DNA from: Prostheceraeus crozeri
Taxonomy: Eukaryota > Platyhelminthes > Polycladida > Euryleptidae
Length of the DNA: 64,000 nt
Direction: 5' to 3'
Assembly: GCA_907163375.1 (NCBI GenBank)
Contig: CAJQUW010001848.1
Span: 67,501-131,500, forward strand
Shown here: piece after piece, positions 16,108 to 64,000 of the stretch
Layout: each line of letters begins with the position of its first letter
How positions within the stretch are numbered: position 1 is the stretch's first letter
Translations under genes and position numbers: made by a program
Notes under the pieces: generated by a model
What the model was told of the DNA's origin: nothing
The model's input: only the letters and a program-made list of their open reading frames with translations
Database searches by the model: none

Positions 16108-16109
16108 TA

Positions 16110-42568: not shown

Positions 42569-43386
42569 TGTGTGTGAGAGTAAATAAATCTATAACAACA
42601 GCGACAAGAAATTGGAGAATTCCTTTATTGTCACTGATCTTTTTAACATTTCACTGTACTATTCTACCTAGAACAGCAACTCAAAACTAAAGAATCAATT
42701 CCTCGGAGCAGGAGTTTCTTTATTTACAGAAGTATCATAGTCAGGTTAGGCATAATGAAAAGATATTCGAAATTATGTTTTTCAATAATTCGCATTTTAA
42801 TTTATCCTGTATGCTCTACATTTGGAAACTGTATGCCGTAGCGGTTCGCTGATCCGAAACCAATGCAGTCATCATTCAATCAAAGTTTATATTTTCATCT
42901 CATTGAAACAACGAGGTAGCTCATTTCGACAGGAAGTGCATTTGAAGCCGTTTCTTCATCGCCTTCCTCCTCGTTCCAGTCAATTATGAAATAGCCCAAA
43001 TTATAGGAGACCTGTAGGACTGATTGCTTGCGGTGTTTCTGTTATCATCCATCAATTAGGTATAGACAATTGCTAATTGAGTAAAATGGAAAATTAACAA
43101 TAGCCGGAAGGTTAATATAGCTTCAAAACCATCTGTTTCCCTTTTTTGATTCAAATAATTGAAAGACGATTATTACGAGTATATTGCCTAATATAGGGTG
43201 ACAATGCTATGCATTAAAAGTCAAAGTTCGGTCAATTACAGATTATTTCTTTAACTCAGTAATACATGCAGTTGAATTCTCTTGTTGAAAGTTGTGCAGC
43301 GCATTTGATGGCTTCCAGTTAACTGAACAAGTGCATATCAATATGAAGTGAATTTGAGGGCATGAATTACTTACTTACTTGCTTAA
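42569..43386. other. gene-free stretch
   Basis: No gene or repeat recognised between the minisatellite and the next LINE fragment. Confidence 0.4.
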
Positions 43387-46369: not shown

Positions 46370-46860
46370 ATCTCCCCCAGTAGTAAGGAAGTGACAAACA
46401 CCAGATAGCGCAAGATGGCCGCCATCGCTGACGTCCCCCCTCCCCCTCCCCCCCTCTGGAACGGCAGAGTGTCGTGGTCGGCCGCCGTGGTGCTTCGAGT
46501 CTGACCCCCCCCCTCCCCTCCCCCCTGGAACGACAGAGGTTGTAGTCTGTCGTGGTGTGCCGACCAGGTTGGTTCACGTTCACAAAATGTTCGCTGACTC
46601 CCCCCCTCTGGAACGACAGAGTGTCGTGGTGGACTTGGGCGACCGCCAGGATTAGTCTTGAGGCTATAGTGTGTGATGTTTTTCGTGCAATCTGCTGAAT
46701 GTTGGGTTGTAAAATGGGCTGTTTCGAGTGGAAGGAGTGCTCGGATGAGAAAACGGAGGCCAGATTCGGATTCAGCGTGAAATTCTGCATCGGTATGGTG
46801 AATTTGAACGCCATCGGAGAGAAAAATTTTCGCTGACGTCCCCCCCCCCTCTGGACAGCT
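46370..46860. repeat. C-run / CRE-like repeat cluster
   Basis: Three related units begin near 46428, 46588 and 46831 with CGCTGAC(GT) followed by a long C-run and CTCTGG. Two or three of them continue into GAACGACAGAGTGTCGTGGT, itself a small inverted repeat (CGACA-GAG-TGTCG). The G-runs on the minus strand could form quadruplexes, and TGACGTC is a CRE/ATF-type site. It lies at the outer edge of the left palindrome arm and may be its terminus or an enhancer. Confidence 0.7.
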
Positions 46861-47335
46861 CGCTTGGATTTTGGCTTCCAGTGAACGGATTTAGTCGTGC
46901 CATAGCTCGTTTGAAAGCTAAGAGTGAGACAAATTCACTGAAAGAATCGGCTTGTTCCTATCTGTCTTCGTTTAGATGTGAGACGCCATTTAAGATTTTG
47001 GGACATTGGCGAAAAACGACAGAGTTAGAATTTGGGACGTTTTGGGCTGTAGCTTCAAAACGAAGCATCGGATTGGAAAACGGATTTCAGATTTGGAATC
47101 AGCGTGAAATTCTCTCTCTGTATGGTGAGTTTCATGTCAATCGGAGTGTTTTAAAGTCAATCGGAGAGAAAAATTTTCAACATTTTTCGAAAAAACGAGT
47201 TAGAATTTTTGCGATGGCTGCCTACTGTAGAGCCAAAAGGAAGCATCGGATGGGAAAACGGAGGCCAGATTCGGATTCAGCGTCAAATTCTACATGGAAA
47301 TGGTGTATTTCCAGCTCAATAGGAGCACTAGAACC
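46735..47335. repeat. three diverged copies of a roughly 90-bp unit
   Basis: Copies at about 46741-46832, 47060-47180 and 47245-47330 share GAAAACGGAGGCCAGATTCG, ATTCAGCGTGAAATTCT, and ATCGGAGAGAAAAATTTTC. On the minus strand all three read in one frame as NFTLNPNLASVF...SDASF-like peptides, so they may be coding remnants. On the plus strand a 161-codon frame (46881-47366) crosses two of them in different phases and is probably not a gene. Confidence 0.65.
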
Positions 47336-47362
47336 GGAGATAGACGGGTTTTTAGTGTTTGG

Positions 47363-47453
47363 ATGATGGGTATTACGTCATCAGCTGATCGCCACACACT
47401 ATATAAGCTGGGAACCGACAGAGACTTGTCATTCAGACGAGAGATTGCCAACG
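47363..47453 (+). promoter_or_regulatory. TATA promoter and leader exon 1 of the coiled-coil gene
   Basis: TATTACGTCATC (CRE/ATF-like) lies upstream of TATATAA at 47400-47406; TCATTC at 47429-47434 places the initiator A at 47431, about 31 bases after the TATA start. The transcribed leader ends at 47453 before GTAAGT. It then joins the acceptor at 48477-48478 across a 1,025-base intron. The right arm lacks this whole block. Confidence 0.75.
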
Positions 47454-48478
47454 GTAAGTCGTCTCTCTGAGCTCCGATGATAGCTTCGGACATTCCAAAT
47501 CCCGAGTTTCTGTAAGAAACCGACTTAGAAAATTTCATTGCTGATATCAGCTAAGGCGTCAGACTTAGAGGTTCGCCAGGAGATGGCCTTCGTCTCCAGG
47601 CCATAAAAGACTTCAAAACTTTAAAGGCTTGTAACTTTCCTTCTACAAGTCCGTTTGACTTGATTCAAAAAAGGTTCGGTCGCTATTGACCTGCCCTAAG
47701 TGATAGACTACTTATAAAATTTCATAAGTAGTGCTAAAAATTTGAAAATTTTAAATTCACTATTTTTGGAGGTTTTCTGGAGTTTTCGACCCTGCTGAAG
47801 TCAATGAAAGCATTTTTAATGATGTCTGAGCCAGTCTTCTCATGGTATAAGCGACTTTTCACTGAAAGCGAGCAAGACACGGAGAGTTTTGCTGTAATAT
47901 TCCACTGACAGGGTGTTCCTTCGGGACGGCGGACGATGCCGTAGTGATAAGTGTGGCAAGGGAGTGTGTCATAGTTTAGACCGTAACCGCTGGGACAACT
48001 CATGTCTCATGTTGGGCATTTGACACAGTTCTCAACGTAGCACTTTGAACGCCAATCGGTTGAGTCTTAGCTATCTTGTCATGGGTGGCCTCTAAACATC
48101 TCCATTGCAAAACGCTGGTGAATCAAGCTCTCTACGGCTTGCTATCAAGCTGATCAAAGCAATAACTTGGGATGTTTCCTCAAGGTTTTCAAGTATGTAA
48201 GTTCAAATGTGCTATCAGATTTCAAATTTAACTAAGTCTAAGGCAGCTTTGAGGGGTTAGATCCCAGCTACTGTTGACTCGGCGTTGCTGTTACCACTTC
48301 GGGGCAGTGACAATGATGTCTTCAGCTGTAAATAGCGGGTATCGGGGAAGATCTCTCACTTCCCTAGTGATCAGTACAAGGCCTTCGGGCTGTCGACGGG
48401 ATCGAGTGCCACTCACTATACTCAAATATATCATTCCTCACTAAGTGTAAAATCATTGTTTTCCGTTTTTCGCTTCAG

Positions 48479-49650
48479 AAATGCCGAAATACAATAATAT
48501 GAAGACCAGTTTCAAACTGTGTCAATGCCGGAAGGTATTCCGGGCTGACGCCTACAAGAAACACGCTTGCACTAACAAGAAACAGATAGGGGTCGCTCGC
48601 TACTATTGCGGAGCCCACAAAGTCAGTCGCTTAAGTGAGCGGCTGGAGGATTGGCACTCACAACACAGCGAGTGTCAAACAGGCGAAGTAGGCGAAGAAG
48701 AACGGAGTTCACTCTTCGCCACTGAGCTCCGTTCTTTGGAGCTACAATCTGCCAACGAGCAAGAACGGAGTTCACTCTTCACCACTGAGGCCACTGAGCT
48801 ACAATCCGCCATTGAAGCGATTGCCGCTATATCCTCACTTAGTAGCGAGAGCTCGCTGTCCAGCAGCGATAGTGAGGAGGAGGGAGAGCTACAGTCGCAA
48901 CCTATCGAGGACGTCGACCTCGATCGCGAGACCCCTACAGCCGTGACTGCGAGTGGAATTGCAACACAATGTCGCAATTTTGTCAAGCGCCCGCCGGTGA
49001 TCGCCGAACGGGATAGACTAAAGAAAGAGGTGGAGAAGTTGAAGGAGGAGGCCTTCTCATACAAGTCAAAGTATGAGGACCTAAAGAACGTGGCCGGAGA
49101 GATGAAGAAGGTGAAGGAGAGATTAAGCGAGCGGGATGGCGAGTTGGATCAGGAGAGGCTCAAGACTCTCGAGGGGAAAGCCAGAGAAGAGGCTTTGCTA
49201 GCAGAGAGGGAAAGTAGGGAGAAGGAGATACGAAGGTTGAAGGAGGAAGTGGAGAGACTCCGTGTGCAGATGGCTAAGGTGGTTGAGACGAATCACGAGC
49301 TGCACCGTTCGGCGCAGCTGGTGGATCGCGATCGAAGGGTGCGTTCCAGCCGTCTGCACATCCCTATTAGAAAGGGGAGAGTAGCAGAAACTCCTCTCTT
49401 GTACGAGCGTGGAAGAGGGGAGAAATGCTACTCTCGGGTGAAGAAAGGGGTGGAGTGTCTACACTTCACCTTCGATCATCGTGATCCGATCTTGAATTTC
49501 CTTTATGAGGAAGCGTCCGAGAAGATCTGTAAGTAAAAATGACTAAATTAAAATGTAAGATGATAACTCACTACTTCTTTCTTTACAGACATCCAAGAGA
49601 AGCGACCACCCGCCCCGTTACCGGAGCCGCAGTCGAAACATCAAGCCTGA
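48479..49650 (+). CDS. zinc-finger/coiled-coil protein of the palindromic element, left copy (intact)
   Basis: A spliced gene predicted to encode 369 aa: exon 2 is 48479-49528 (ATG 48481, two bases after the acceptor TTCGCTTCAG), the intron 49529-49588 has GTAAGT and TTCTTTACAG ends, and exon 3 is 49589-49650 (TGA). With the short 60-base intron removed, the frame stays open. Residues 14-30 form a C-x-C-x11-H-x-C finger-like motif, with further C43, H46, H59, H62 and C65. About 66-150 is Glu/Ser-rich and acidic. About 180-275 is a charged coiled coil. A basic patch (about 285-305) and a VECLHFTFDHRDP-like segment follow. The architecture suggests a nuclear DNA- or protein-binding regulator. 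No family recognised. Compare the broken right-arm copy. Confidence 0.75.
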
Positions 49651-50033
49651 GTCCCTACCACACACCCCGAGAACGAACCACCGGCTCTCTTAAGGGCCAC
49701 CATGGGGCAAGACATGATAGAACCTCCACGCGGTTTGCCCTGGGCAGTCTTCGGACTGGCGAATACTATCATTAAGTTGAATCTGCTATCAGTCAACTTG
49801 AACGTTGCAAATGAAGTTCGGTGTAATACTTCCTTTCGACGGGCGTTCCTGTAAAGGGCGGCGGTGAAACCCGTAGCTATGTATACCGCAAGGGACATTC
49901 GGCAATGGTCAATCTTGTTAAACCTCTCTGCGTCATGTTTGCAAGTGATTGCCTCTGTCTCAACGTAGTATGCATTCGCGCCAGGGCGACATTTAGCCAA
50001 CTGTCGAAGGTTGCCTAAAACTTTCCATTGCAT
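49641..50033 (-). CDS. 130-aa ORF of unknown function, left copy
   Basis: An ATG-started frame opposite the 3' end of the coiled-coil gene; the two coding ends overlap by about 10 bases. The protein has several Cys residues (for example C15 and CKHDAERF...HC), a central hydrophobic stretch and a basic ALYRNARRKEVLHRTS segment. It is predicted identically from the right arm, although neighbouring coding regions differ between arms. I see no TATA box or own poly(A) signal, so its expression is doubtful. It may be a conserved frame inside the 3' UTR of the plus-strand gene. Function unknown. Confidence 0.45.
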   Translation of the reverse strand: MQWKVLGNLRQLAKCRPGANAYYVETEAITCKHDAERFNKIDHCRMSLAVYIATGFTAALYRNARRKEVLHRTSFATFKLTDSRFNLMIVFASPKTAQGKPRGGSIMSCPMVALKRAGGSFSGCVVGTQA

Positions 50034-50388
50034 ACGTTATGAGAACCATGAGTTCTACCTGTCTCTATCAATGAGACGAATTGATGAATGGAATGAAATG
50101 GGAGGACACTCACGCGCCACACGCAACATAACACACTTCTCTCTTCCGTAGTCTAACAAGCTACACAAGCTTTACACATGGATCGCAGTCGATTGCTATC
50201 CCTGTATCAGAAGTGTAAGCTATCTTAATTTTATCTAACACTATTTCATCTATCATCATCGCCCATATGAAATGTTATAAGAATTGCAAGTTAAACTAAG
50301 TGTGCTACTATTTCCAAATGAAAAAGTATACATGGTTAAATCATCCACTGAAGCCCCATTCAAGTAAGTCAGTATGAAAGCAAAGATA

Positions 50389-50408
50389 ATATGAAATAAA
50401 AATTTATT
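50389..50408. terminator. back-to-back poly(A) signals
   Basis: ATGAAATAAAAATTTATTAT carries AATAAA on both strands within about 15 bases. The plus-strand signal would end the coiled-coil gene transcript, and the minus-strand signal sits on the stop codon of the 70-aa gene. It is conserved in the right arm. Confidence 0.7.
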
Positions 50409-50619
50409 ATGGCATGTATTTCAAAAGGTCTTCATCGTCAATATCATCCCAGAGTCTGGCTTCACATAGATCACAAAAACAGTTCACTTGCTTCAATCGT
50501 TCTTCTACCGCGAGGCTCACTTTGTCGATGTACTCCCACTCCGCCATAGTTCGTGGCTGGGAGTTAGGGGTGTACCATTCCCATAATTGGTGGAGGAATT
50601 TGGTGCTGGCGATCTCCAT
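50407..50619 (-). CDS. small Cys-rich acidic protein, left copy
   Basis: A 70-aa frame from ATG 50619 (a GTG precedes it). The N-terminal half is Trp-rich (HQLWEWYTP...MAEWEYIDK), then comes a C-x-C-x2-C cluster (NCFCDLCEARLW, about residues 47-52) and a strongly acidic end (DDIDDEDLLKYMP). The stop overlaps AATAAA, as in compact viral genes. The right-arm copy differs by a single Thr/Ser change, so both copies are intact. The cysteine cluster may bind a metal, though three cysteines alone are not diagnostic. Not recognised; a role cannot be assigned. Confidence 0.6.
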   Translation of the reverse strand: MEIASTKFLHQLWEWYTPNSQPRTMAEWEYIDKVSLAVEERLKQVNCFCDLCEARLWDDIDDEDLLKYMP

Positions 50620-50639
50620 CACTATTCGCGAGTGTCGTT

Positions 50640-51200
50640 AGAAAGTGTATCATGGTTTGTAAAAGTTTTACTGCAACACAGGTTGATGTATAGTTAGAAA
50701 AGTTTGATCATCAACGTTGTATTCGTAAGTCTAGTCAGAAACTTTATCATGTTGTACAAAAGTTTTATTGCAACACAGGTTGATGTATAGTTAGAAAGTT
50801 TGATCATCAACGTTTTATTTGTAAGTCTAGTCAGAAAGTGTATCATGGTTTGCAAAGTTAGTGTAGTCAAATAATTTTACTGTGACACCCGTTTGAGAAA
50901 GTAAAGTCTGATCATCGAAGTTGTATTCGTGAGTGTCGTTAGAAAGTGTATCATGGTTTGTAAAAGTTTTACTGCAACACAGGTTGATGTATAGTTAGAA
51001 AAGTTTGATCATGACGTTTTATGAAACACACATGTCATGAAATGTAAGCGTTAGTGTAGTCAAATAATTTACCGCGACGCACGTTTGTGAAAATAAAGTT
51101 TGATCATTGACGTTATATGACTGACCGAACTCATCACAGCACTAGAAAGTTTTAGAAGGTTTTACTGCACAGTGTAGATTGTCTTGTAACTTACTTTCAC
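50640..51200. repeat. roughly 97-bp direct-repeat cluster, left arm
   Basis: Repeated blocks contain AGAAAGTGTATCATGG, AAAGTTTTACTGCAACACAG, GTTGATGTATAGTTAGAAA and GTTTGATCATCAACGTT (with an internal TGATCA palindrome). Units are imperfect. The cluster separates the divergent 70-aa gene and the TATA promoter at 51776, the position expected for an enhancer or origin-like region. The right-arm equivalent is 204 bp longer. Confidence 0.8.
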
Positions 51201-51775
51201 AGTGTTAGAAAGTTTTATTGGAGACAGTTGCCAAATGTTTCCCTATTAGAAATTCAAACTTCATGACTGTTAGATTAGCTTCATCAGGTTTAGTAAAAGC
51301 AGTTTTCTACTGCAGTAAGACTGCGAGTTTAGAATGTTATATGAAAACAGTGTTCATCACAGCGCTAGAACGTTTTACTGCGCTGTGTAGATTGTTTCAC
51401 ACAAGGTCTTATAGTCAGCGTTGAATGTTTTATAAAACCAGATGTTGTCACACACGTTGAGTGTACGAGAGCTAGTTCCATGACATTGAATCACATGGAT
51501 TGTAAAGTTCATAATCCAAGGCTAGGCTCCTCTACGGTTGGATTTAGGGTTTTATATTACATGCGTTAACCGTTCGTGTAGAATATGTGAAGCACATGTT
51601 CACTTAAATGCAAATGTTGAAATAAGTTTGTAAGAAGTCTTTGACAGCTTGTTGTGAAACGTAGCGAACGTTGAAGAAATGTTTCTGCAGTCACACTCGT
51701 TAGCGTGTCAGATTTGGAATCAGCTTGATGTTATTGTCGAATGAGGATCATCATCCAATGAGAATCAAGCATTTC
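51201..51775. other. upstream region of the inner promoter
   Basis: Contains further degraded repeat words and a 68-codon frame (51218-51424) that is identical in both arms but sits in repeat-derived DNA. I do not call a gene. A conserved, otherwise featureless stretch runs up to the TATA box. Confidence 0.4.
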
Positions 51776-51882
51776 TATATAAATAGCGAGCCTTCCACAG
51801 TGAGAATCATTCCATCGTTGAATCACACGAGTGACGGACGCACATTTTCTCTCTCTCTCTATTCTATTATCCAACTAAAATG
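51776..51882 (+). promoter_or_regulatory. TATA promoter and ATG-ending leader exon, left arm
   Basis: TATATAAATA at 51776-51785 is followed by TCATTC at 51807-51812 (initiator A at 51809). The leader exon contains a CT-run and ends AAAATG|GTAAGT, so the initiator codon 51880-51882 is the last codon of the exon. This leader can serve any downstream exon beginning in phase 0. Confidence 0.8.
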
Positions 51883-52369
51883 GTAAGTCGCTACTTTCCT
51901 CCCTCTCCTCCCTTGAACGTAAACTTAATACAATCTTTTTCATTTTCAGGCATCTACTCCATCTGCTGCACTAGTAGGACAAAATGGCGGTCAAACGTTA
52001 CAAGGTTCGCTACGATCAGATCATCTACAACTGAGGCCAGTGGAAGAAACAACCAAGGTACATAATCCTACACCGCTACAGCGTAAATTTAAACAAGTCT
52101 TACGTTATGACGATCATGACGTAGTACTCCAAACGGGAATGCTCCCTTCCACGGATGTCAAGATAATGCACAATCAGTATGGGGACTACATACTGATCCC
52201 CGTGAGTCCGTACATTCGCCGCCAACTTGATATTATTGAGGAGTACGTGACATTAAATATGGACATTCCTACTCCTCTTGCTCAAGAGTGGAAGGCGAGA
52301 GATGACAAGGATACTCCCTATATAAAGATTTGGGATGGTAATCACATTTGCCTACCGCTATCACATTGA
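51880..52369 (+). pseudogene. basic-tail nuclear-type protein, left copy (broken)
   Basis: CDS joins 51880-51882 (ATG) to 51950 onward, across a 67-base intron with GTAAGT and CATTTTCAG ends. The product begins Met-Ala-Ser and is read for 140 codons to a TGA at 52367-52369; the right arm has Trp at this codon. Beyond it the frame continues recognisably but with a further small deletion near 52550. The full-length family member would be about 235 aa, ending in a Lys/Arg-rich tail (KRKSEKN...KRKSKKE-like) typical of nuclear import signals. The middle part has no domain I recognise. It is interpreted as a decayed virus-like gene. Confidence 0.7.
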
Positions 52370-52612
52370 TGGGCTTACTATAAGAAGGAGGGAGATCATT
52401 CAATACCCATCAGATGTGATGAGCTCGGAGAAGGTACTTGGGATATCCTTTTCAAAGTGAATGGGCTATATTATGGTCGACACAAGGATAATAAAATAGC
52501 CTCTCTCTCCATGCATATGGAATCCATCCTATATATTCCAAAACCACCAATGTTGACGACATAATTGATCAAATCCTTAACAGCAGTGGTACGAAGCGCA
52601 AGTCGGAGAAGA

Positions 52613-52813
52613 ATGCTGCCTCAAAACGCAAATCAAAGAAGGAGAATTACTAGTCCTTTCCTAACTCTACCCTATGACAATTCGCTTATGTGCTTTGAGT
52701 GTCGTAGACGTGGTCTTATTAGATACATTTTACTTCTTCGTTGCCATCATATCATTTGTGTATTTTGTCGTGAAAAGCATCGATGTAATTCTTCATTTTG
52801 TGATATGTTATAG
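52613..52813 (+). CDS. small RING-like ORF, left copy
   Basis: A 66-codon frame that overlaps the 3' end of the basic-tail gene in another phase. Its second half has the spacing C-x2-C-x13-C-x-H-x2-C-x2-C-x5-C-x4-C (from MCFECRRRGL through LRCHHIICVFC to CNSSFC), close to a RING finger, although the last pair is wider than the usual C-x2-C. The start could instead be ATG 52689 (41 aa), which keeps all the cysteines. It is identical in the right arm. Small RING proteins are common in large DNA viruses as ubiquitin ligases, but that role is only an inference. Confidence 0.45.
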   Translation: MLPQNANQRRRITSPFLTLPYDNSLMCFECRRRGLIRYILLLRCHHIICVFCREKHRCNSSFCDML

Positions 52814-52846
52814 AACGTTTCCTTAGATGTGTAATTTCCGTTTTAG

Positions 52847-53395
52847 GCTTCTATCATCATTTTTATGGATTGTGAAGGTGAACCTGTGCAGGAGCTCAGT
52901 GCTATTGCTATGAACAATTGGACATATCAGATTGTTAGTGTCTATCATCAACATGCCAACTGTGATCCCAATGTTGATCAATGGGCGAGAAAACACATTC
53001 ATGGACTTAATCTGAAATATTTGCAAGACTATGGCTTTTCTTGTGAGACTGCTCTTCTTATTGACTTTAAACGATGGTTAGCTGCTTTCAATGTTATACG
53101 CATTTTTTGTAATAATCCTGGTAAGGAGAGGAAAGTATTTCCCAATCTAGTCATTAATGATATTTTGCTCCCACCTTGGGATAGTAGAGTGAATCAACAC
53201 TATCATGAAGTCACGAAACGTTTTAAGGATTTGTGTGTTCCTATTTTGTCTGTTCGTTGTAGTAGCTACGTTCATAACCAATGCTTCTTTCCTCCTTACC
53301 TCAACACTGTCAAAGTCCTATATGGTTATCATTGCTCGCTATATGACAGTTACCAGCTGTATCTATTTTATCTGTTTCAAACCATTGATTTGTAA
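52847..53395 (+). CDS. DEDD exonuclease-like protein, left copy (intact)
   Basis: An exon opening after TTCCGTTTTAG (AG 52845-52846). Joined to the ATG leader exon at 51882, the frame reads Met-Ala-Ser and then a hydrophobic strand (IIIF) running into MDCEGEPVQELSAI, giving about 183 aa. An internal ATG at 52865 would allow an unspliced start. The hhhh-D-x-E ... ELSAI pattern (Asp 9, Glu 11) matches motif I of DnaQ/DEDD 3'-5' exonucleases. HGLNLKYLQDYG, the FCNNPGKE segment and HYHEVTKRFKD are plausible later motifs, but the remaining catalytic acids are not certain. AATAAA follows at about 53418. It could act in processing nucleic acid ends, or be a non-catalytic RNase H-fold protein. Confidence 0.6.
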   Translation, partial: ASIIIFMDCEGEPVQELSAIAMNNWTYQIVSVYHQHANCDPNVDQWARKHIHGLNLKYLQDYGFSCETALLIDFKRWLAAFNVIRIFCNNPGKERKVFPNLVINDILLPPWDSRVNQHYHEVTKRFKDLCVPILSVRCSSYVHNQCFFPPYLNTVKVLYGYHCSLYDSYQLYLFYLFQTIDL

Positions 53396-53579
53396 TGCAT
53401 GCTTGTTACAGTTATTCAATAAATGTTATTATGCGAAGAGTTGTTGTTATCATGCAACGGATGGGTTAGATGAAGGGTGATCATATCTTTTTCAAATGAC
53501 TGTGAAACATTGATTTCCATGATGAAGATTTAAACAGATAGATTTGATGACGAATAAGATTTACTAGTTTGCAAGTCAG

Positions 53580-54740
53580 ACTAAGCGTTCTATTATTTGT
53601 AAATAAAAGATATAGTTTCAACAGTTTACAGATTAAAAATAAAGTTTCAATAGTGTATGTGTTAGAAATAAAGTTTAAGCTGTTTCTATGTTAGAAATAA
53701 AATAAAGTTTCAAGAGTTTACAAGTTAAAAATAAAGTTTCAACAGTGTGTACGTTAGAAATAAAGTTACATCTGTTTGTAAAAATAAGATTGCGGGATTA
53801 AATAGTTTGTAAGTTAGACTAAGCGTTCCACTATTTGTAAATGAAAGATATAGTTTCAACAGTTTACAGATTACAAAATAAAGTTTCAATAGTGTGTATG
53901 TTAAAAATAAAGTTTAAGCTTTTTGTGTGTTAGAAATAGAATAAAGTTTCAACAGTTTGTAGATTAAAAATAAAGTTTCAACAGTGTGCACGTTAAAAAT
54001 AAAGTTTCAATAGTGTGTATGTTAAGAATAAAGTTCTATCTGTTTATATGTTAGAAATAAAAATGAAGGTTCACCAGTTTACAAGTTAAGAATAAAGTTT
54101 CATCTGCTTGTATGTCAGAAATGAAAAAAAGCTTCACCAGTTTACAAGTTAAAAATAAAGTTTCAATAGTGTGTATGTTAGAAACAAAGTTTCAACCGCT
54201 TACAAGTTAAAATTAAAGTTTCAATAGTTTACAAGTTAAGAATAAAGTTTCAATAGTGTGTATGTTAAGAATAAAGTTCTATCTGCTTATATGTTAGAAA
54301 TAGAATGAAGTTTCACCAGTTTACAAGTTAAGAATAAAGTTCTATCTGTTTGTATATTAGAAATAAAACAAAGTTTCAACAGTTTACAAGTTAAAATTAA
54401 AGTTTCAATAGTTTACAAGTTAAGAATAAAGTTTCAATAGTGTGTATGTTACGAATAAAGTTCTATCTGTTTATATGTTAGAAATAGAATGAAGTTTCAC
54501 CAGTTTACAAGTTAAGAATAAAGTTCTATCTGTTTGTATATTAGAAATAAAACAAAGTTTCAACCGTTTACAAGTTAAAATTAAAGTTTCAATAGTTTAC
54601 AAGTTAAGAATAAAGTTTCAACAGTGTGTACATTAGAAATAAAGTTTTAGCTGTTTATATGTTAGAAACAAAATAAAGTTTCAACAGTTTACAGGTTGAA
54701 AAATAAAGTTTCAACAGTGTGTGCGTTAGAAATAAATGAA
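53580..54740 (+). repeat. poly(A)-signal tandem array, left half
   Basis: Imperfect units of about 27-36 bp alternate between GTTTACAAGTTAAAAATAAA-type and GTGTGTACGTTAGAAATAAA-type blocks, each followed by GTTTCAAC or GTTTCATC. Almost every unit carries AATAAA on the plus strand, downstream of the exonuclease-like gene. Not CRISPR: there are no unique spacers. Confidence 0.9.
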
Positions 54741-54920
54741 AGTAAGAACTTCATCGTATGAGTATTCAAAGTATGTTTTGTAAATCAAATGTGTGTAGTA
54801 CTGACATGATAGAATCAAGCTTGACAAACGCGTCAAGCTTGATTCTATCATGTCAGTACTACACACATTTGATTTACAAAACATACTTTGAATACTCATA
54901 CGATGAAGTTCTTACTTTCA
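54741..54920. other. palindrome centre
   Basis: A non-repetitive core of about 80 bases per side (containing GTAGTACTGACATGATAGAA) folds back on itself across AAACGC (54826-54831). No gene. A related non-inverted copy of part of this core recurs in the right array at about 55085-55170. Confidence 0.85.
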
Positions 54921-57900
54921 TTTATTTCTAACGCACACACTGTTGAAACTTTATTTTTCAACCTGTAAACTGTTGAAACTTTATTTTGTTTCTAACATAT
55001 AAACAGCTAAAACTTTATTTCTAATGTACACACTGTTGAAACTCTATTTTTAACTTGTAAACGCCTGAAACTTTATTTCTAACGCGATTCTATCATGTCG
55101 GTACTACACACATTTGATTTACAAAACATGCTTTGAATACTAATACGATGAAGTTCTTACTTTCATTTATTTCTAACGTACACACTGTTGAAACTTTATT
55201 TTTCAACTTGTAAAGTTTTGAAACTTTATTTTGTTTCTAACATATAAACAGCTAAAACTTTATTTTTAACGTGCACACTGTTGAAACTTTATTTTTAACT
55301 TGTAAACGGTTGAAACTTTATTTCTAACGCACAAAGCGCTTAAACTTTATTTCCATCATACACACTATTGAAACTTTATTTTAATCTGTAAACTGTTGAA
55401 ACGATATCTTTCATTTACAACTAGTAGAATGCTGAGTCTAACTTGCAAACTAGTAAATCCTACGATCGTACTTTACAAACAGATAAAATTTTATTTCTAA
55501 CGTAGACACTGTTGAAACTTTATTTTTAACTTGTAAACGGTTGAAACTTTATTTCTAACGTACACACTATTGAAACTTTATTTTTAACTTGTTAACGGTT
55601 GAAACTTTATTCTATTTCTAACATGCAAACAGATAAAACTTTATTCTTAACTTGTAAACTGATGAAACTTCAATTTATTTCTAAAATACAAGCTGATAAA
55701 ACTTTATTCTTAACTTGTAAACTGGTAAAGCTTCATTCTATTTCTAACATACAAACAGATAAAACTTTATTCTTAACATACACACTATTGAAACATTAGT
55801 TTTAACTTGCAAACTATTGAAACTTTATTTTTGACTTGTTAACGGTTGAAACTTTATTCTATTTCTAACATACAAACAGATAAAACTTTATTTTTAACTT
55901 GTAAACGGTTGAAACTTTGTTTTATTTCTAACATACAAACAGATAAAACTTTATTCTTAACTTGTAAACTGGTGAAACTTCATTCTATTTCTAACATATA
56001 AACAGACAGAACTTTATTCGTAACATACACACTATTGAAACTTTATTCTTAACTTGTAAACTATTGAAACTTTAATTTTAACTTGTAAACGGTTGAAACT
56101 TTGTTTTATTTCTAATATACAAACAGATAGAACTTTATTCTTAACTTGTAAACTGGTGAAACTTCATTCTATTTCTAACATATAAACAGATAGAACTTTA
56201 TTCGTAACATACACACTATTGAAACTTTATTCTTAACTTGTAAACTATTGAAACTTTAATTTTAACTTGTAAACGGTTGAAACTTTGTTTTATTTTTAAT
56301 ATACAAACAGATAGAACTTTATTCTTAACTTGTAAACTGGTGAAACTTCATTCTATTTCTAACATATAAACAGATAGAACTTTATTCTTAACATACACAC
56401 TATTGAAACTTTATTCTTAACTTGTAAACTATTGAAACTTTAATTTTAACTTGTTAACGGTTGAAACTTTATTCTATTTCTAACATACAAACAGATAAAA
56501 CTTTATTTTTAACTTGTAAACGGTTGAAACTTTGTTTTATTTCTAATATACAAACAGATAGAACTTTATTCTTAACTTGTAAACTGGTGAAACTTCATTC
56601 TATTTCTAACATATAAACAGATAGAACTTTATTCTTAACATACACACTATTGAAACTTTATTCTTAACTTGTAAACTATTGAAACTTTAATTTTAACTTG
56701 CTAACGGTTGAAACTTTATTCTATTTCTAACATACAAACAGATAAAACTTTATTTTTAACTTGTAAACGGTTGAAACTTTGTTTTATTTCTAATATACAA
56801 ACAGATAGAACTTTATTCTTAACTTGTAAACTGGTGAAACTTCATTCTATTTCTAACATATAAACAGATAGAACTTTATTCGTAACATACACACTATTGA
56901 AACTTTATTCTTAACTTGTAAACTATTGAAACTTTAATTTTAACTTGTAAGCGGTTTAAACTTTATTTCTAACATACACACTATTGAAACTTTATTTTAA
57001 CTTTTAAACTGGTGAAGCTTTATTTCATTTCTGACATACAAGCAGATAAAACTTTATTCTTAACTTGTAAACTGGTGAACCTTCATTTTTATTTCTAACA
57101 TATAAACAGATAGAACTTTATTCTTAACATACACACTATTGAAACTTTATTCTTAACTTGTAAACTATTGAAACTTTAATTTTAACTTGTTAACGGTTGA
57201 AACTTTATTCTATTTCTAACATACAAACAGATAAAACTTTATTTTTAACTTGTAAACGGTTGAAACTTTGTTTTATTTCTAATATACAAACAGATAGAAC
57301 TTTATTCTTAACTTGTAAACTGGTGAAACTTCATTCTATTTCTAACAAATAAACAGACAGAACTTTATTCGTAACATACACACTATTGAAACTTTATTCT
57401 TAACTTGTAAACTATTGAAACTTTAATTTTAACTTGTAAGCGGTTGAAACTTTGTTTCTAACATACACACTATTGAAACTTTATTTTTAACTTTTAAACT
57501 GGTGAAGCTTTATTTCATTTCTGACATACAAGCAGATAAAACTTTATTCTTAACTTGTAAACTGGTGAACCTGCATTTTTATTTCTAACATATAAACAGA
57601 TAGAACTTTATTCTTAAAATACACACTATTGAAACTTTATTTTTAACGTGCACACTGTTGAAACTTTATTCTATTTCTAACACACAAAAAGCTTAAACTT
57701 TATTTTTAACATACACACTATTGAAACTTTATTTTGTAATCTGTAAACTGTTGAAACTATATCTTTCATTTACAAATAGTGGAACGCTTAGTCTAACTTA
57801 CAAACTATTTAATCCCGCAATCTTATTTTTACAAACAGATGTAACTTTATTTCTAACGTACACACTGTTGAAACTTTATTTTTAACTTGTAAACTCTTGA

Positions 57901-58010
57901 AACTTTATTTTATTTCTAACATAGAAACAGCTTAAACTTTATTTCTAACACATACACTATTGAAACTTTATTTTTAATCTGTAAACTGTTGAAACTATAT
58001 CTTTTATTTA
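54921..58010 (-). repeat. poly(A)-signal tandem array, right half (expanded)
   Basis: The inverted counterpart of 53580-54740 but about 1.95 kb longer, with higher-order blocks of about 220-300 bp repeated several times (compare 56040-56300, 56390-56640, 56640-56900 and 57120-57390). TTTATT on the plus strand is AATAAA on the minus strand, again downstream of the inward-transcribed right-arm genes. Confidence 0.9.
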
Positions 58011-58214
58011 CAAATAATAGAACGCTTAGTCTGACTTGCAAACTAGTAAATCTTATTCGTCATCAAATCTATCTGTTTAAATCTTCATCATGGAAATCAA
58101 TGTTTCACAGTTATTTGAAAAAGATATGATCACCCTTCATCTAACCCATCCGTTGCATGATAACAACAACTCTTCGTATAATAACATTTATTGAATAACT
58201 GTAACAAGCATGCA

Positions 58215-58752
58215 TTACAAATCAATGGTTTGAAACAGATAAAATAGATACAGCTGGTAACTGTCATATAGCGAGCAATGATAACCATATAGGACTTTGG
58301 CAGTGTTGAGGTAAGGAGGAAAGAAGCATTGGTTATGAACGTAGCTACTACAACGAACAGACAAAATAGGAACACACAAATCCTTAAAACGTTTCGTGAC
58401 TTCATGATAGTGTTGATTCACTCTACTATCCCAAGGTGGGAGCAAAATATCATTAATGACTAGATTGGGAAATACTTTCCTCTCCTTACCAGGATTATTA
58501 CAAAAAATGCGTATAACATTGAAAGCAGCTAACCATCGTTTAAGTCAATAAGAAGAGCAGTCTCACAAGAAAAGCCATAGTCTTGCAAATATTTCAGATT
58601 AAGTCCATGAATGTGTTTTCTCGCACATTGGGATCACAGTTGGCATGTTGATGATAGACACTAACAATCTGATATGTCCAATTGTTCATAGCAATAGCAC
58701 TGAGCTCCTGCACAGGTTCACCTTCACAATCCATAAAAATGATGATAGAAGC
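58215..58752 (-). pseudogene. DEDD exonuclease-like gene, right copy (broken)
   Basis: The mirror copy of the left exonuclease-like exon (acceptor at 58753-58754). Relative to the left arm it lacks 10 bases near 58624 and one base in a T-run near 58540, so it is frameshifted twice. The motif I region at the start is unchanged. The last 76 codons remain open. AATAAA lies downstream as in the left arm. Confidence 0.75.
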
Positions 58753-58785
58753 CTAAAACGGAAATTACACATCTAAGGAAACGTT

Positions 58786-58986
58786 CTATAACATATCACA
58801 AAATGAAGAATTACATCGATGCTTTTCACGACAAAATACACAAATGATATGATGGCAACGAAGAAGTAAAATGTATCTAATAAGACCACGTCTACGACAC
58901 TCAAAGCACATAAGCGAATTGTCATAGGGTAGAGTTAGGAAAGGACTAGTAATTCTCCTTCTTTGATTTGCGTTTTGAGGCAGCAT
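58786..58986 (-). CDS. small RING-like ORF, right copy
   Basis: The protein is identical to the left copy at 52613-52813, including all cysteines and the histidine of the RING-like pattern. It overlaps the 3' end of the basic-tail gene, which in this arm retains its proper ending. No separate promoter is visible; it would rely on the shared leader or on leaky initiation. Confidence 0.45.
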   Translation of the reverse strand: MLPQNANQRRRITSPFLTLPYDNSLMCFECRRRGLIRYILLLRCHHIICVFCREKHRCNSSFCDML

Positions 58987-59719
58987 TCTTCTCCGACTTG
59001 CGCTTCGTACCACTGCTGTTAAGGATTTGATCAATTATGTCGTCCACATTGGGTGGTTTTGGAATATATAGGATGGATTCCATATGCATGGAGAGAGAGG
59101 CTATTTTATTATCCTTTAGCCGACCATAGTATAGCCCATTCACTTTGAAAAGGATATCCCAAGTACCTTCTCCGAGCTCATCACATCTGATGGGTATTGA
59201 ATGATCTCCCTCCTTCTTATAGTAAGCACACCAATGTGATAGCGGTAGGCAAATGTGATTACCATCCCAAATCTTTATATAGGGAGTATCCTTGTCATCT
59301 CTCGCCTTCCACTCTTGAGCAAGAGGAGTAGGAATGTCCATATTTAATGTCACGTACTCCTCAATAATATCAAGTTGGCGGCGAATGTACGGACTCACGG
59401 GGATCAGTATGTAGTCCCCATACTGATTGTGCATTATCTTGACATCCGTGGAAGGAGCATTCCCGTTTGGAGTACTACGTCATGATCGTCATAACGTAAG
59501 ACTTGTTTAAATTTACGCTGTAGCGGTGTAGGATTATGTACCTTGGTTGTTTCTTCCACTGGCCTCAGTTGTAGATGATCTGATCGTAGCGAACCTTGTA
59601 ACGTTTGACCGCCATTTTGTCCTACTAGTGCAGCAGATGGAGTAGATGCCTGAAAATGAAAAAGATTGTATTAAGTTTACGTTCAAGGGAGGAGAGGGAG
59701 GAAAGTAGCGACTTACCAT
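58946..59719 (-). pseudogene. basic-tail nuclear-type protein, right copy (frameshifted)
   Basis: ATG 59719-59717 ends the leader exon, the intron runs from 59716 to 59650, and exon 2 starts at 59649. One C is missing from a C-run at about 59450 compared with the left arm, which breaks the frame early. From an internal ATG (59434) the rest of the protein is open to 58946, including the Trp that is a stop in the left arm and the Lys/Arg-rich C-terminus. The two arms therefore carry different lesions in this gene. Confidence 0.7.
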
Positions 59720-59825
59720 TTTAGTTGGATAATAGAATAGAGAGAGAGAGAGAAAATGTGCGTCCGTCACTCGTGTGATTCAACGATGGAATGATTCTCA
59801 CTGTGGAAGGCTCGCTATTTATATA
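59717..59825 (-). promoter_or_regulatory. TATA promoter and ATG-ending leader exon, right arm
   Basis: The mirror copy of the left promoter: the TATA motif lies at 59816-59825 (plus strand TATTTATATA), the initiator near 59792, and the leader ends in ATG|GTAAGT at 59717/59716. All elements are intact. Confidence 0.78.
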
Positions 59826-60179
59826 GAAATGCTTGATTCTCATTGGATGATGATCCTCATTCGACAATAACATCAAGCTGATTCCAAATCTGACACGCTA
59901 ACGAGTGTGACTGCAGAAACATTTCTTCAACGTTCGCTACGTTTCACAACAAGCTGTCAAAGACTTCTTACAAACTTATTTCAACATTTGCATTTAAGTG
60001 AACATGTGCTTCACATATTCTACACGAACGGTTAACGCATGTAATATAAAACCCTAAATCCAACCGTAGAGGAGCCTAGCTTGGATTATGAACTTTACAA
60101 TCCATGTGATTCAATGTCATGGAACTAGCTCTCGTACACTCAACGTGTGTGACAACATCTGGTTTTATAAAACATTCAA

Positions 60180-61165
60180 CGCTGACTATAAGACCTTGTG
60201 TGAAACAATCTACACAGCGCAGTAAAACGTTCTAGCGCTGTGATGAACACTGTTTTCATATAACATTCTAAACTCGCAGTCTTACTGCAGTAGAAAACTG
60301 CTTTTACTAAACCTGATGAAGCTAATCTAACAGTCATGAAGTTTGAATTTCTAATAGGGAAACATTTGGCAACTGTCTCCAATAAAACTTTCTAACACTG
60401 TGAAAGTAAGTTACAAGACAATCTACACTGTGCAGTAAAACCTTCTAAAACTTTCTAGTGCTGTGATGAGTTCGGTCAGTCATATAACGTCAATGATCAA
60501 ACTTTATTTTCACAAACGTGCGTCGCGGTAAATTATTTGACTACACTAACGCTTACATTTCATGACATGTGTGTTTCATAAAACGTTGATGATCAAACTT
60601 TCTAACTATACATCAACCTGTGTTGCAGTAAAACTTTTACAAACCATGATACACTTTCTAACGACACTCAGGAATACAACTTCGATGATCAGACTTTACT
60701 TTCTCAAACGGGTGTCACAGTAAAATTATTTGACTACACTAACTTTGCAAACCATGATACACTTTCTGACTAGACTTACAAATAAAACGTTGATGATCAA
60801 ACTTTCTAACTATACATCAACCTGTGTTGCAGTAAAACTTTTACAAACCATGATACACTTTCTAACGACACTCACGAATACAACTTCGATGATCAGACTT
60901 TACTTTCTCAAACGGGTGTCACAGTAAAATTATTTGACTACACTAACTTTGCAAACCATGATACACTTTCTGACTAGACTTACAAATAAAACGTTGATGA
61001 TCAAACTTTCTAACTATACATCAACCTGTGTTGCAATAAAACTTTTGTACAACATGATAAAGTTTCTGACTAGACTTACGAATACAACGTTGATGATCAA
61101 ACTTTTCTAACTATACATCAACCTGTGTTGCAGTGAAACTTTTACAAACCATGATACACTTTCTA
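60180..61165. repeat. roughly 97-bp direct-repeat cluster, right arm
   Basis: The inverted counterpart of the cluster at 50640-51200 and its flank, with 204 extra bases. The words AACGTTGATGATCAAACTTT, CTAACTATACATCAACCTGT, GTTGCAGTAAAACTTTTACA and CATGATACACTTTCT recur four to five times, one clear unit more than on the left. Confidence 0.8.
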
Positions 61166-61184
61166 ACGACACTCGCGAATAGTG

Positions 61185-61397
61185 ATGGAGATCGCCAGCT
61201 CCAAATTCCTCCACCAATTATGGGAATGGTACACCCCTAACTCCCAGCCACGAACTATGGCGGAGTGGGAGTACATCGACAAAGTGAGCCTCGCGGTAGA
61301 AGAACGATTGAAGCAAGTGAACTGTTTTTGTGATCTATGTGAAGCCAGACTCTGGGATGATATTGACGATGAAGACCTTTTGAAATACATGCCATAA
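61185..61397 (+). CDS. small Cys-rich acidic protein, right copy
   Basis: The mirror copy of 50407-50619, 70 aa from ATG 61185, with one substitution (Ser for Thr near residue 6). The Trp-rich start, the C-x-C-x2-C cluster and the acidic end are retained, and the stop again overlaps AATAAA. Preservation in both arms supports a real gene. Function unknown. Confidence 0.6.
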   Translation: MEIASSKFLHQLWEWYTPNSQPRTMAEWEYIDKVSLAVEERLKQVNCFCDLCEARLWDDIDDEDLLKYMP

Positions 61398-61770
61398 TAA
61401 ATTTTTATTTCATATTATCTTTGCTTTCATACTGACTTACTTGAATGGGGCTTCAGTGGATGATTTAACCATGTATACTTTTTCATTTGGAAATAGTAGC
61501 ACACTTAGTTTAACTTGCAATTCTTATAACATTTCATATGGGCGATGATGATAGATGAAATAGTGTTAGATAAAATTAAGATAGCTTACACTTCTGATAC
61601 AGGGATAGCAATCGACTGCGATCCATGTGTAAAGCTTGTGTAGCTTGTTAGACTACGGAAGAGAGAAGTGTGTTATGTTGCGTGTGGCGCGTGAGTGTCC
61701 TCCCATTTCATTCCATTCATCAATTCGTCTCATTGATAGAGACAGGTAGAACTCATGGTTCTCATAACGT

Positions 61771-62163
61771 ATGCAATGGAAAGTTTTAGGCAACCTTCGA
61801 CAGTTGGCTAAATGTCGCCCTGGCGCGAATGCATACTACGTTGAGACAGAGGCAATCACTTGCAAACATGACGCAGAGAGGTTTAACAAGATTGACCATT
61901 GCCGAATGTCCCTTGCGGTATACATAGCTACGGGTTTCACCGCCGCCCTTTACAGGAACGCCCGTCGAAAGGAAGTATTACACCGAACTTCATTTGCAAC
62001 GTTCAAGTTGACTGATAGCAGATTCAACTTAATGATAGTATTCGCCAGTCCGAAGACTGCCCAGGGCAAACCGCGTGGAGGTTCTATCATGTCTTGCCCC
62101 ATGGTGGCCCTTAAGAGAGCCGGTGGTTCGTTCTCGGGGTGTGTGGTAGGGACTCAGGCTTGA
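61771..62163 (+). CDS. 130-aa ORF of unknown function, right copy
   Basis: Predicts the same protein as the left copy at 49641-50033 over all 130 residues. It overlaps the end of the inverted coiled-coil gene by about 10 bases. As on the left, no promoter or poly(A) signal of its own is evident. Confidence 0.45.
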   Translation: MQWKVLGNLRQLAKCRPGANAYYVETEAITCKHDAERFNKIDHCRMSLAVYIATGFTAALYRNARRKEVLHRTSFATFKLTDSRFNLMIVFASPKTAQGKPRGGSIMSCPMVALKRAGGSFSGCVVGTQA

Positions 62164-63329
62164 TGTTTCGACTGCGGCTCCGGTAACGGGGCGGGTGGTC
62201 GCTTCTCTTGGATGTCTGTAAAGAAAGAAGTAGTGAGTTATCATCTTACATTTTAATTTAGTCATTTTTACTTACAGATCTTCTCGGACGCTTCCTCATA
62301 AAGGAAATTCGAGATCGGATCACGATGATCGAAGGTGAAGTGTAGACACTCCACCCCTTTCTTCACCCGAGAGTAGCATTTCTCCCCTCTTCCACGCTCG
62401 TACAAGAGAGGAGTTTCTGCTACTCTCCCCTTTCTAATAGGGGTGTGCAGACGGCTGGAACGCACCCTTCGATCGCGATCCACCAGCTGCGCCGAACGGT
62501 GCAGCTCGTGATTCGTCTCAACCACCTTAGCCATCTGCACACGGAGTCTCTCCACTTCCTCCTTCAACCTTCGTATCTCCTTCTCCCTACTTTCCCTCTC
62601 TGCTAGCAAAGCCTCTTCTCTGGCTTTCCCCTCGAGAGTCTTGAGCCTCTCCTGATCCAACTCGCCATCCCGCTCGCTTAATCTCTCCTTCACCTTCTTC
62701 ATCTCTCCGGCCACGTTCTTTAGGTCCTCATACTTTGACTTGTATGAGAAGGCCTCCTCCTTCAACTTCTCCACCTCTTTCTTTAGTCTATCCCGTTCGG
62801 CGATCACCGGCGGGCGCTTGACAAAATTGCGACATTGTGTTGCAATTCCACTCGCAGTCACGGCTGTAGGGGTCTCGCGATCGAGGTCGACGTCCTCGAT
62901 AGGTTGCGACTGTAGCTCTCCCTCCTCCTCCTCCTCACTATCGCTGCTGGACAGCGAGCTCTCGCTACTAAGTGAGGATATAGCGGCAATCGCTTCAATG
63001 GCGGATTATAGCTCAGTGGCCTCAGTGGTGAAGAGTGAACTCCGTTCTTGCTCGTTGGCAGATTGTAGCTCCAAAGAACGGAGCTCAGTGGCGAAGAGTG
63101 AACTCCGTTCTTCTTCGCCTACTTCGCCTGTTTGACACTCGCTGTGTTGTGAGTGCCAATCCTCCAGCCGCTCACTTAAGCGACTGACTTTGTGGGCTCC
63201 GCAATAGTAGCGAGCGACCCCTATCTGTTTCTTGTTAGTGCAAGCGTGTTTCTTGTAGGCGTCAGCCCGGAATACCTTCCGGCATTGACACAGTTTGAAA
63301 CTGGTCTTCATATTATTGTATTTCGGCAT
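62154..63329 (-). pseudogene. zinc-finger/coiled-coil protein, right copy (nonsense, no promoter)
   Basis: The mirror copy of 48481-49650: exon 2 is 63329-62276 and exon 3 is 62215-62154, with the short intron's splice sites kept. A TAA at 63006-63008 replaces the Gln codon of the left copy after 107 codons. A GAG-repeat expansion adds two Glu. Downstream, the coiled-coil region is fully open (62861-62276). The leader exon, TATA box and CRE-like site are missing because of the 0.7-kb deletion beyond 63925, so this copy is unlikely to be expressed normally. Confidence 0.75.
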
Positions 63330-64000
63330 TTCTGAAGCGAAAAACGGAAAACAATGATTTTACACTTAGTGAGGAATGATAGATTTGAGTATAGTGAGTG
63401 GCACTCGATCCCGTCGACAGCCCGAAGGCCTTGTACTGATCACTAGGGAAGTGAGATATCTTCCCCGATACCCGCTATTTACAGCTGAAGACATCATTGT
63501 CACTGCCCCGAAGTGGTAACAGCAACGCCGAGTCAACAGTAGCTGGGATCTAACCCCTCAAAGCTGCCTTAGACTTAGTTAAATTTGAAATCTGATAGCA
63601 CATTTGAACTTACATACTTGAAAACCTTGAGGAAACATCCCAAGTTATTGCTTTGATCAGCTTGATAGCAAGCCGTAGAGAGCTTGATTCACCAGCGTTT
63701 TGCAATGGAGATGTTTAGAGGCCACCCATGACAAGATAGCTAAGACTCAACCGATTGGCGTTCAAAGTGCTACGTTGAGAACTGTGTCAAATGCCCAACA
63801 TGAGGCATGAGTTGTCCCAGCGGTTACGGTCTAAACTATGACACACTCCCTTGCCACACTTATCACTACGGCATCGTCCGCCGTCCCGAAGGAACACCCT
63901 GTCAGTGGAATATTACAGCAAAACTCTCCGTTGAAATGTTGAAAATTTTTCTCCCCGATTGACTTTAAAACTCTCCGATTGACATGAAACTCACCATACA
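63330..64000. other. outer part of the right arm, deletion junction at about 63925-63936
   Basis: The inverted copy of the long 5' intron region of the coiled-coil gene (left 47880-48478). At about 63925-63936 it jumps directly to the sequence matching left 47120-47185, skipping about 690 bases. A short Cys-containing frame (SCPSGYGLNYDTLPCHTYHY at about 63808) exists in both arms but is too short to call. Confidence 0.7.

What the first reader, a model, noticed from the sequence alone, without database searches (positions are those of the whole stretch)
47120..64000. Head-to-head palindrome of a compact, gene-bearing virus-like element
Two arms of at least 7.7 and 9.2 kb meet with a 6-base loop and carry the same gene set in mirror order: zinc-finger/coiled-coil, 130-aa ORF, Cys-rich acidic protein, basic-tail protein, RING-like and exonuclease-like. 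Spliced transcripts, TATA/initiator promoters, overlapping genes and stop codons merged with AATAAA are typical of nuclear-replicating large DNA viruses. I do not recognise a known family. A concatemer junction, the inverted repeats of a large viral genome, or a giant transposon terminus are the main readings.
Basis: partly seen in the sequence, partly recalled or inferred. Interest (0 to 1): 0.88.

Follow-up and report, generated by a model that had tools for sequence, protein, structure and literature searches.

The report
Palindromic satellite of a Maverick virus-transposon
An animal chromosome carries a mirror-image mobile DNA element, a stripped-down relative of a virus-like Maverick that keeps only genes from the parent's two ends, and the copies compared suggest that its two halves are kept matching each other.

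Summary
The palindrome is real and larger than reported: 18,900 bp, from window 46379 to 1,278 bases past the window end, with a perfect 6-bp target duplication (TCCCCC) and (AGT)2//(ACT)2 ends. Three of three palindromic copies with both ends readable have such duplications, so the whole palindrome inserts as one unit; a host inverted duplication or read artefact is very unlikely. In the same 2.05-Gb genome, full-length relatives carry a Maverick/Polinton gene set (PolB by motifs, integrase, protease, ATPase, capsid-like proteins, even a TATA-binding protein). Each palindrome arm fuses left-end and right-end modules of that parent to a private spacer and an AT-rich array; the core is missing. 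A palindrome-specific probe gave 2375 unscored candidates; of 40 scored, 30 form 15 convergent pairs. Exonuclease modules of palindromes group apart from full-length copies; outer modules do not; yet the arms of one element match each other best in most comparisons. Best reading: a non-autonomous Maverick satellite mobilised in trans, whose arms are re-copied from each other by snap-back/hairpin replication. Identity and insertion are shown; mobilisation and replication mechanism are inferred. New variant of a known kind.

The parts
46373..46378 (.). left target-site duplication TCCCCC (right copy lies beyond the window at C1521:132779-132784)
46379..64000 (.). palindromic element; continues 1,278 bases beyond the window end (total 18,900 bp)
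46379..47325 (+). terminal region: end motif AGTAGTAAG, G/C-rich block and degenerate tandem repeats shared with full-length Mavericks
47399..47408 (+). TATA box of the zinc-finger gene; not found in the right arm
48481..49650 (+). zinc-finger/coiled-coil gene (exons 48481-49528 and 49589-49650; 5'-UTR intron 47454-48478; exons inferred from splice signals)
49700..50074 (.). hyperconserved block (2 variable columns of 375 in 9 copies), overlapping the 130-aa ORF on the minus strand
50407..50622 (-). truncated copy of the Cys-rich acidic protein gene; end of the left-end module
50623..51706 (+). palindrome-specific spacer with 97-bp tandem repeats (50640-51012)
51707..53511 (+). right-end module of the parent Maverick (TATA at 51776; ATG 51880-51882 directly followed by splice donor)
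51950..52651 (+). OB-like (guess) basic-tail protein, second exon; frame broken in this arm
52688..52813 (+). short RING-like ORF (weak: zf-RING_5 E=0.32)
52847..53395 (+). DEDDh 3'-5' exonuclease (exon after an acceptor ending at 52846), open frame
53512..58098 (.). central AT-rich tandem array around the axis, longer on the right
54826..54831 (.). 6-nt loop at the palindrome axis
58215..58752 (-). mirror copy of the exonuclease, broken by small deletions
58946..59649 (-). mirror copy of the OB-like gene, frame broken
62268..63329 (-). mirror copy of the zinc-finger gene with a premature stop

Best explanation
A palindromic, non-autonomous satellite of a resident Maverick/Polinton (adintovirus-like) element. 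SHOWN: it is inserted as one unit with a 6-bp target duplication and (AGT)2//(ACT)2 ends; its arms are made of the two end modules of full-length Mavericks in the same genome, without the replication/capsid core; it is present in many copies; the exonuclease frame has evolved under constraint. INFERRED: it borrows polymerase, integrase and probably capsid in trans from full-length copies, because both ends carry the Maverick end. INFERRED: it arose when a protein-primed, strand-displacement replication intermediate lost its core, snapped back at a small dyad and was copied into a head-to-head dimer. INFERRED: the same snap-back or hairpin copying (or mismatch correction in the hairpin) still resets one arm from the other before insertion, which is why the arms of one copy agree even where that copy carries a different outer module by recombination with a full-length element.
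For: Perfect 6-bp TSDs in 3 of 3 palindromic copies with both ends read: TCCCCC, CTCAGC, AGTGAG; a fourth (C1353) has an assembly gap at its left end. Such ends and TSDs are as published for vertebrate Mavericks (PMC8097293, passages). Full-length copies: rve integrase E=1.2e-11 and TBP E=1.1e-20, both above Pfam's cut-offs; Ulp1/adenovirus-type protease E=0.0013/0.044 and Adeno_PX E=0.0018, below cut-off; PolB motifs; ATPase (PHROG E=0.0018) with a GPSHAGKT loop. Arm = window 46379-50622 (one parental end) + 51707-53511 (the other end). The junction into the array (53511) is shared by the four copies read, the spacer with its junctions by three (C1521, C1353, C4873). 30 of 40 scored spacer hits form 15 pairs, all convergent. 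True arm pairing is the best of all 105 pairings of 8 palindromic arms for each of two markers; 8 of 8 and 6 of 8 arms have their own mate as (joint) nearest. For 14 pairs seen through probe scores the two arms agree more than in all but 21 of 100,000 reshuffles. In unrooted trees the exonuclease modules of palindromes split from full-length ones at 100/100; in the zinc-finger module both arms of PAL1340 group with full-length C12099 at 100/99. Exonuclease pN/pS 0.11 palindrome vs full-length, 0.19 among palindromes (21 non-independent pairs each).
Against: No mobility, particles or extrachromosomal DNA were observed. Arm agreement could also come from gene conversion after insertion. One of four elements (C1353) fits poorly: its right exonuclease arm is nearer to C1521 (0.50%) than to its own mate (1.00%). 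A symmetric axis was found in three of the four copies (C1340 only with 9-10 mismatches in 120); in C4873 the script found none, 66 mismatches in 120. C1340 lacks the spacer. The origin of spacer and array is unknown. Pfam, PHROGs and PDB gave no DNA polymerase B match; that call rests on motifs. Only 4 palindromes and 3 full-length copies (plus two partial) were read, out of hundreds of candidates.
Confidence: 0.78

Rival explanations
1. Same element, but the arms are kept alike by gene conversion between the arms in the chromosome, as in Y-chromosome palindromes, not by re-copying during replication.
For: Within-element similarity by itself does not tell when homogenisation happened.
Against: In the window copy large differences persist (691-bp deletion, 2 kb of array, a stop in one arm only), so conversion after insertion is not thorough. 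In PAL1340 both arms carry the same exchanged outer module and the same variant OB region, which either process could produce.
Confidence: 0.3
2. Palindromes arose many times independently from full-length Mavericks (ordinary defective genomes) and each inserted once.
For: Protein-primed replicons are known to give symmetric defective molecules (recalled: Ad12 SYREC, yeast pGKL derivatives). C1340 lacks the spacer and C4873 shows no symmetric axis.
Against: Shared array junction in the four copies read, shared spacer in three, and one exonuclease group.
Confidence: 0.1
3. Inverted duplication of host DNA containing a transposon, or an assembly/fold-back read artefact.
For: Palindromes are a typical artefact; the window alone could not exclude it.
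Against: Target duplications at the outer ends in three elements, different flanks, structural differences between arms, 15 convergent pairs on 14 contigs.
Confidence: 0.03
4. Terminal inverted repeats or concatemer junction of a large nuclear DNA virus (herpes- or pox-like).
For: Gene-bearing inverted repeats, AT-rich array and hairpin-like axis resemble such junctions.
Against: Complete unit with ends and target duplication on both sides; relatives are Mavericks.
Confidence: 0.02

Closest known systems
Maverick/Polinton elements, adintoviruses (PMC8097293, passages read)
   Same: (AGT)2//(ACT)2 ends, 6-bp target duplication; the full-length relatives have PolB motifs, integrase, protease, ATPase and capsid-like genes.
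   Different: The palindrome lacks the whole core, is mirror-symmetric, and has private spacer and central array.
Symmetric defective adenovirus genomes (Ad12 SYREC) and palindromic derivatives of yeast linear plasmid pGKL1 (both recalled, not read)
   Same: Protein-primed replicons giving molecules with the same end at both termini.
   Different: Here the form is integrated at many loci, carries open genes and appears to exchange ends with the parent.
Invertron mitochondrial plasmids such as pAL2-1 (PMC1864894, passages read)
   Same: Protein-primed replicons; the paper mentions a snap-back mechanism, panhandle/racquet intermediates, and inverted repeats at integrated copies.
   Different: Those inverted repeats are host mitochondrial DNA flanking a plasmid copy.
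KolobokD DNA transposons (PMC9587614, section 11 read)
   Same: Animal mobile elements encoding a DEDDh exonuclease.
   Different: No Kolobok transposase was seen here; the full-length parent is a Maverick; 6-bp target duplication.
Foldback elements (FB, TU, Galileo; recalled)
   Same: Very long inverted repeats with internal tandem repeats.
   Different: Here the arms carry genes with splice signals and Maverick ends.

Membership tests
Maverick/Polinton | 6-bp target duplication and AG..CT / (AGT)2 ends | tested here: met
   3 of 3 palindromes with both ends read; target duplications of full-length copies were not tested, no copy had both ends resolved
Maverick/Polinton | protein-primed PolB, rve integrase, protease, packaging ATPase, capsid genes | tested here: not met
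   Not seen in the window palindrome or in the three other palindromic copies read, whose centre is array; present in full-length relatives. Hence filed as a derivative, not as a Maverick.
Maverick/Polinton (full-length relatives) | PolB by profile | tested here: inconclusive
   Motifs YADIE, YYDQNNLYG, GGDTDSF found, my pattern for motif B not (motif names recalled); no PolB profile match in Pfam, PHROGs or PDB
Symmetric defective genome of a protein-primed virus | same parental end at both termini, core deleted, palindromic | tested here: met
Symmetric defective genome of a protein-primed virus | replicates extrachromosomally with helper | not testable with these tools
   no read or particle data
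KolobokD | Kolobok DDE transposase | tested here: not met
   no transposase in the arm by ORF list and Pfam scan of the main ORFs
DEDDh exonuclease (RNase_T-like) | DxE, H-x4-D motifs and RNase_T profile | tested here: met
   D2, E4, E88, H156, D161 invariant in 66 aligned sequences; RNase_T is the profile matched by most members, 8 of 66, best E=4.9e-4; the window's own copy has no Pfam match; fold prediction not available
Foldback transposons | non-coding inverted repeats | tested here: not met
   open, constrained frames in the arms

The most novel reading that the evidence does not exclude
The palindrome is not junk but the second part of a two-part (helper plus palindromic segment) Maverick: it keeps end genes (zinc-finger, OB-like, exonuclease) in duplicate and mostly open, while the OB-like gene is broken in all 3 full-length copies examined, so the two parts may depend on each other; and it proofreads itself by copying one arm from the other in each replication cycle.
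Probability: 0.12. Interest if true: 0.92.

Novelty: new variant of a known kind. Interest (0 to 1): 0.74.

Why it matters
Mavericks are suspected to be animal viruses, but their replication is little known (PMC8097293 abstract: particles not observed). A palindromic lineage that inserts as a unit, appears to exchange ends with full-length copies and keeps its arms matched would be a genomic record of protein-primed replication with snap-back intermediates, and gives testable predictions (identical arms in new copies, hairpin forms, helper dependence). It would also be a gene-carrying satellite of a Maverick, analogous to defective or satellite viruses. On print: searches (terms incl. palindrom, maverick, polinton, adintovirus; 58 papers, 15 listed; maverick, polinton, adintovir, 6-bp target site, fold-back, defective interfering; 16 papers, 15 listed) showed no title or abstract about such a form, and 'palindrom' occurs 0 times in PMC8097293, PMC8363768, PMC11071308 and PMC12220804. 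Most subscription papers are not held, so absence in print is not shown.

Tried and rejected
KolobokD as the element's identity: suggested by the exonuclease, rejected when the full-length relatives proved to be Mavericks. Herpes- or pox-like telomere junction: rejected by the target duplications. Loop orientation (AAACGC in C1521, GCGTTT in C1353) as flip-flop evidence: rejected, because insertion orientation alone gives it. RNA structure in the conserved block: none beyond shuffles (z 0.22 and 0.79). Rfam: nothing in the element at the gathering threshold; the 7 weak matches of a permissive search were all below it. IMG/VR: 5 scans, no relative; bacterial/archaeal genomes: 2 scans, none; phages: none. 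PDB by sequence: no meaningful match. OB-fold for the basic-tail protein is a guess from sequence pattern; no profile supports it. Copy counts for the exonuclease and polymerase probes could not be obtained (unanswered; also 109 for a PAL1340 probe).
Full report
Check of the observation. The window is C1521:67501-131500 of a genome of 2.049 Gb in 14,165 contigs. Bases 1 to about 46 kb look like animal DNA: a cadherin exon and a mariner-like element by Pfam, and by eye tRNA-derived short repeats and retroelement remnants. From 46379 two mirror arms run to an axis with a 6-nt loop at 54826-54831. Outside the 97-bp repeats and the AT array they differ at 17 of 4859 columns (0.35%; the three left-out repeat bins have 12 of 750). 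They are not copies of one read: the right arm lacks 691 bp with the TATA box and first exon of the zinc-finger gene, its AT array is about 2 kb longer, and it has an extra 204-bp block.

Ends and insertion. The bases beyond the window (L009) show the right end at C1521:132778. Both ends read AGTAGTAAGGAAGTGACAAACACC inward and are flanked by TCCCCC on both sides: an 18,900-bp unit with a perfect 6-bp target duplication. Two other palindromic copies show CTCAGC/CTCAGC (C4873, 30,662 bp) and AGTGAG/AGTGAG (C1340, 20,098 bp). A fourth (C1353) has an assembly gap at its left end and could not be scored.

The parent. A 393-bp probe from the left arm gave 741 first-look candidates, of which 40 were scored, all at 99-100%. 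Of the 8 loci cut out, 2 are the window's own arms; the other 6 match the window only up to about 50622. Read piecewise at C9429, C12099, C6789 and in part at C10593 and C10123, the sequence further in encodes a 1271-aa frame with B-family polymerase motifs and an endonuclease-VII-like stretch, two frames of 476 and 519 aa with a WEVGV pattern (its link to Polintons is recalled), a TATA-binding-protein homologue, an Ulp1/adenovirus-type protease, capsid-like proteins (no profile match; assigned by position and recalled pattern), a retroviral-type integrase, an ATPase with a GPSHAGKT loop, an adenovirus-PX-like protein, a RING-like protein, and at the other end the exonuclease and OB-like genes, read inward from that end. 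The profile matches are from C9429 except the polymerase stretch (C9429 and C10593). Protease and PX scores are below Pfam's cut-offs. This is the Maverick/Polinton gene set as described for vertebrates (PMC8097293, passages). No full-length copy had both ends resolved, so their target duplications are untested.

Anatomy of the palindrome. Each arm is one end module of the parent (to 50622, inside the Cys-rich gene), a private spacer with 97-bp repeats (50623-51706), the other end module (51707-53511) and the AT-rich array up to the axis. C1353 and C4873 have the same order; C1340 shares the modules and the junction into the array, but has no spacer: array-like and unmatched sequence stands there. 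No copy of the four has a centre other than array in the matches listed. The axis is symmetric in C1521 (0 mismatches in 120), C1353 (2) and, imperfectly, C1340 (9-10); in C4873 no symmetric axis was found (66).

Copy number and orientation. The spacer probe gave 2375 first-look candidates, of which 40 were scored, all at 99-100%. Of the 40, 30 form 15 pairs on 14 contigs (C1353 holds two pairs), all convergent; 10 are single. The distance between paired probes runs from 4.7 to 22.5 kb, so array length varies greatly. First-look candidates are unscored and are not copy counts.

Ancestry. In the exonuclease module the eight palindromic arms split from three full-length copies at 100/100 in an unrooted tree (0.5-1.8% between palindromes, 3.2-4.4% to full-length). 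In the zinc-finger module they do not: both arms of C1340 group with full-length C12099 at 100/99 (tree of 9 rows; four rows of the shorter marker, PAL4873_L, PAL1353_L, FL10593 and FL10123, were left out because a fetched stretch ends inside). So palindromes share an inner module but seem to exchange outer modules with full-length elements. In the OB region C1340 differs by about 8% from the others, yet its two arms are identical there (this marker had only three complete pairs and was not permuted). Over four elements the true pairing of arms is the single best of 105 pairings for each of two markers. 8 of 8 arms (outer marker) and 6 of 8 (exonuclease) have their own mate as (joint) nearest palindromic arm; the two exceptions involve C1353_R and C1521_L. 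For 14 pairs seen only through probe scores, mates agree more than in all but 21 of 100,000 reshuffles; this used only hits among the top 40, and left out C1521, the source of the probe.

Genes. The exonuclease frame shows no gap or stop in 9 of 10 copies compared (not the window's right arm); pN/pS is 0.11 between palindromes and full-length copies, 0.19 among palindromes and 0.25 among full-length copies (21, 21 and 3 non-independent pairs). The zinc-finger frame has no stop in 6 of 7 copies compared (a stop in C4873's right arm), pN/pS 0.37-0.48. The OB-like gene is open in 5 of 7 palindromic arms tested and broken in 3 of 3 full-length copies, one of these read only in part; pooled pN/pS 0.34 in 9 copies. 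The Cys-rich fragment has pooled pN/pS 0.13 in 10 copies, 4 of them full-length. The exonuclease belongs to a broad family: the profile search found 122 proteins with E up to 0.1 among 1230 candidates, 120 listed, sources given only as ena, lgn or jgi. DxE and H-x4-D residues are invariant in 66 aligned members, and RNase_T is the profile matched by most members (8 of 66, best E=4.9e-4).

Mechanism. Shown: insertion as a unit, derivation, high copy number, matched arms in most comparisons. Inferred: one lineage, exchange of ends, mobilisation in trans by full-length copies, origin and maintenance by snap-back or hairpin copying during protein-primed strand displacement. Gene conversion after insertion is not excluded. 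Defective symmetric adenovirus and linear-plasmid genomes are the nearest recalled precedents; a snap-back mechanism and panhandle intermediates are mentioned for invertron plasmids in PMC1864894 (passages).

Limits and odds. Statements on array length depend on the assembly. On checking I found the symmetric axis in three, not four, copies and the spacer junctions in three; I therefore raised the independent-origin rival from 0.07 to 0.10 and lowered the best explanation from 0.80 to 0.78.

Noticed in passing
L026:6102-6800 (C9429); similar frame L030:5218-5919 (C12099, not scanned): A full-length Maverick copy encodes a TATA-binding-protein homologue (Pfam TBP E=1.1e-20); the element's own promoters have TATA boxes.
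   Followed up: partly
window 49700-50074 and copies: A 375-bp block with only 2 variable columns in 9 copies although neighbouring 75-bp bins usually have about 4; overlaps the 130-aa ORF, synonymous sites are conserved too; no RNA structure beyond shuffles.
   Followed up: partly
L034:2627-5260 (C6789): A Gypsy-like retroelement reading frame inside a full-length Maverick copy (by eye).
   Followed up: no
L029:373-2033 and L031:4977-6619 (C12099): Sequence of window 11090-12728 lies in opposite orientation on the two sides of this full-length copy.
   Followed up: no
window 41806-42571: Short-period tandem repeat with open frames on both strands; Pfam Halo_GVPC 24.8 bits (cut-off 22.4) without a significant single stretch, probably repeat composition.
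   Followed up: no
window 14333-16113: Mariner-like element with 180-bp inverted ends at 96% and a DUF4817/DDE_3 frame.
   Followed up: no
L019:4785-4800 (C1340 axis): The axis core is fully symmetric here (GACAAACGCGTTTGTC), whereas C1521 and C1353 have a shorter core with an asymmetric loop; possibly a central deletion that stabilises the palindrome.
   Followed up: no
L016 around 5443 (C4873): Half of the axis sequence is present but no symmetric partner was found beside it; perhaps a larger central deletion.
   Followed up: no
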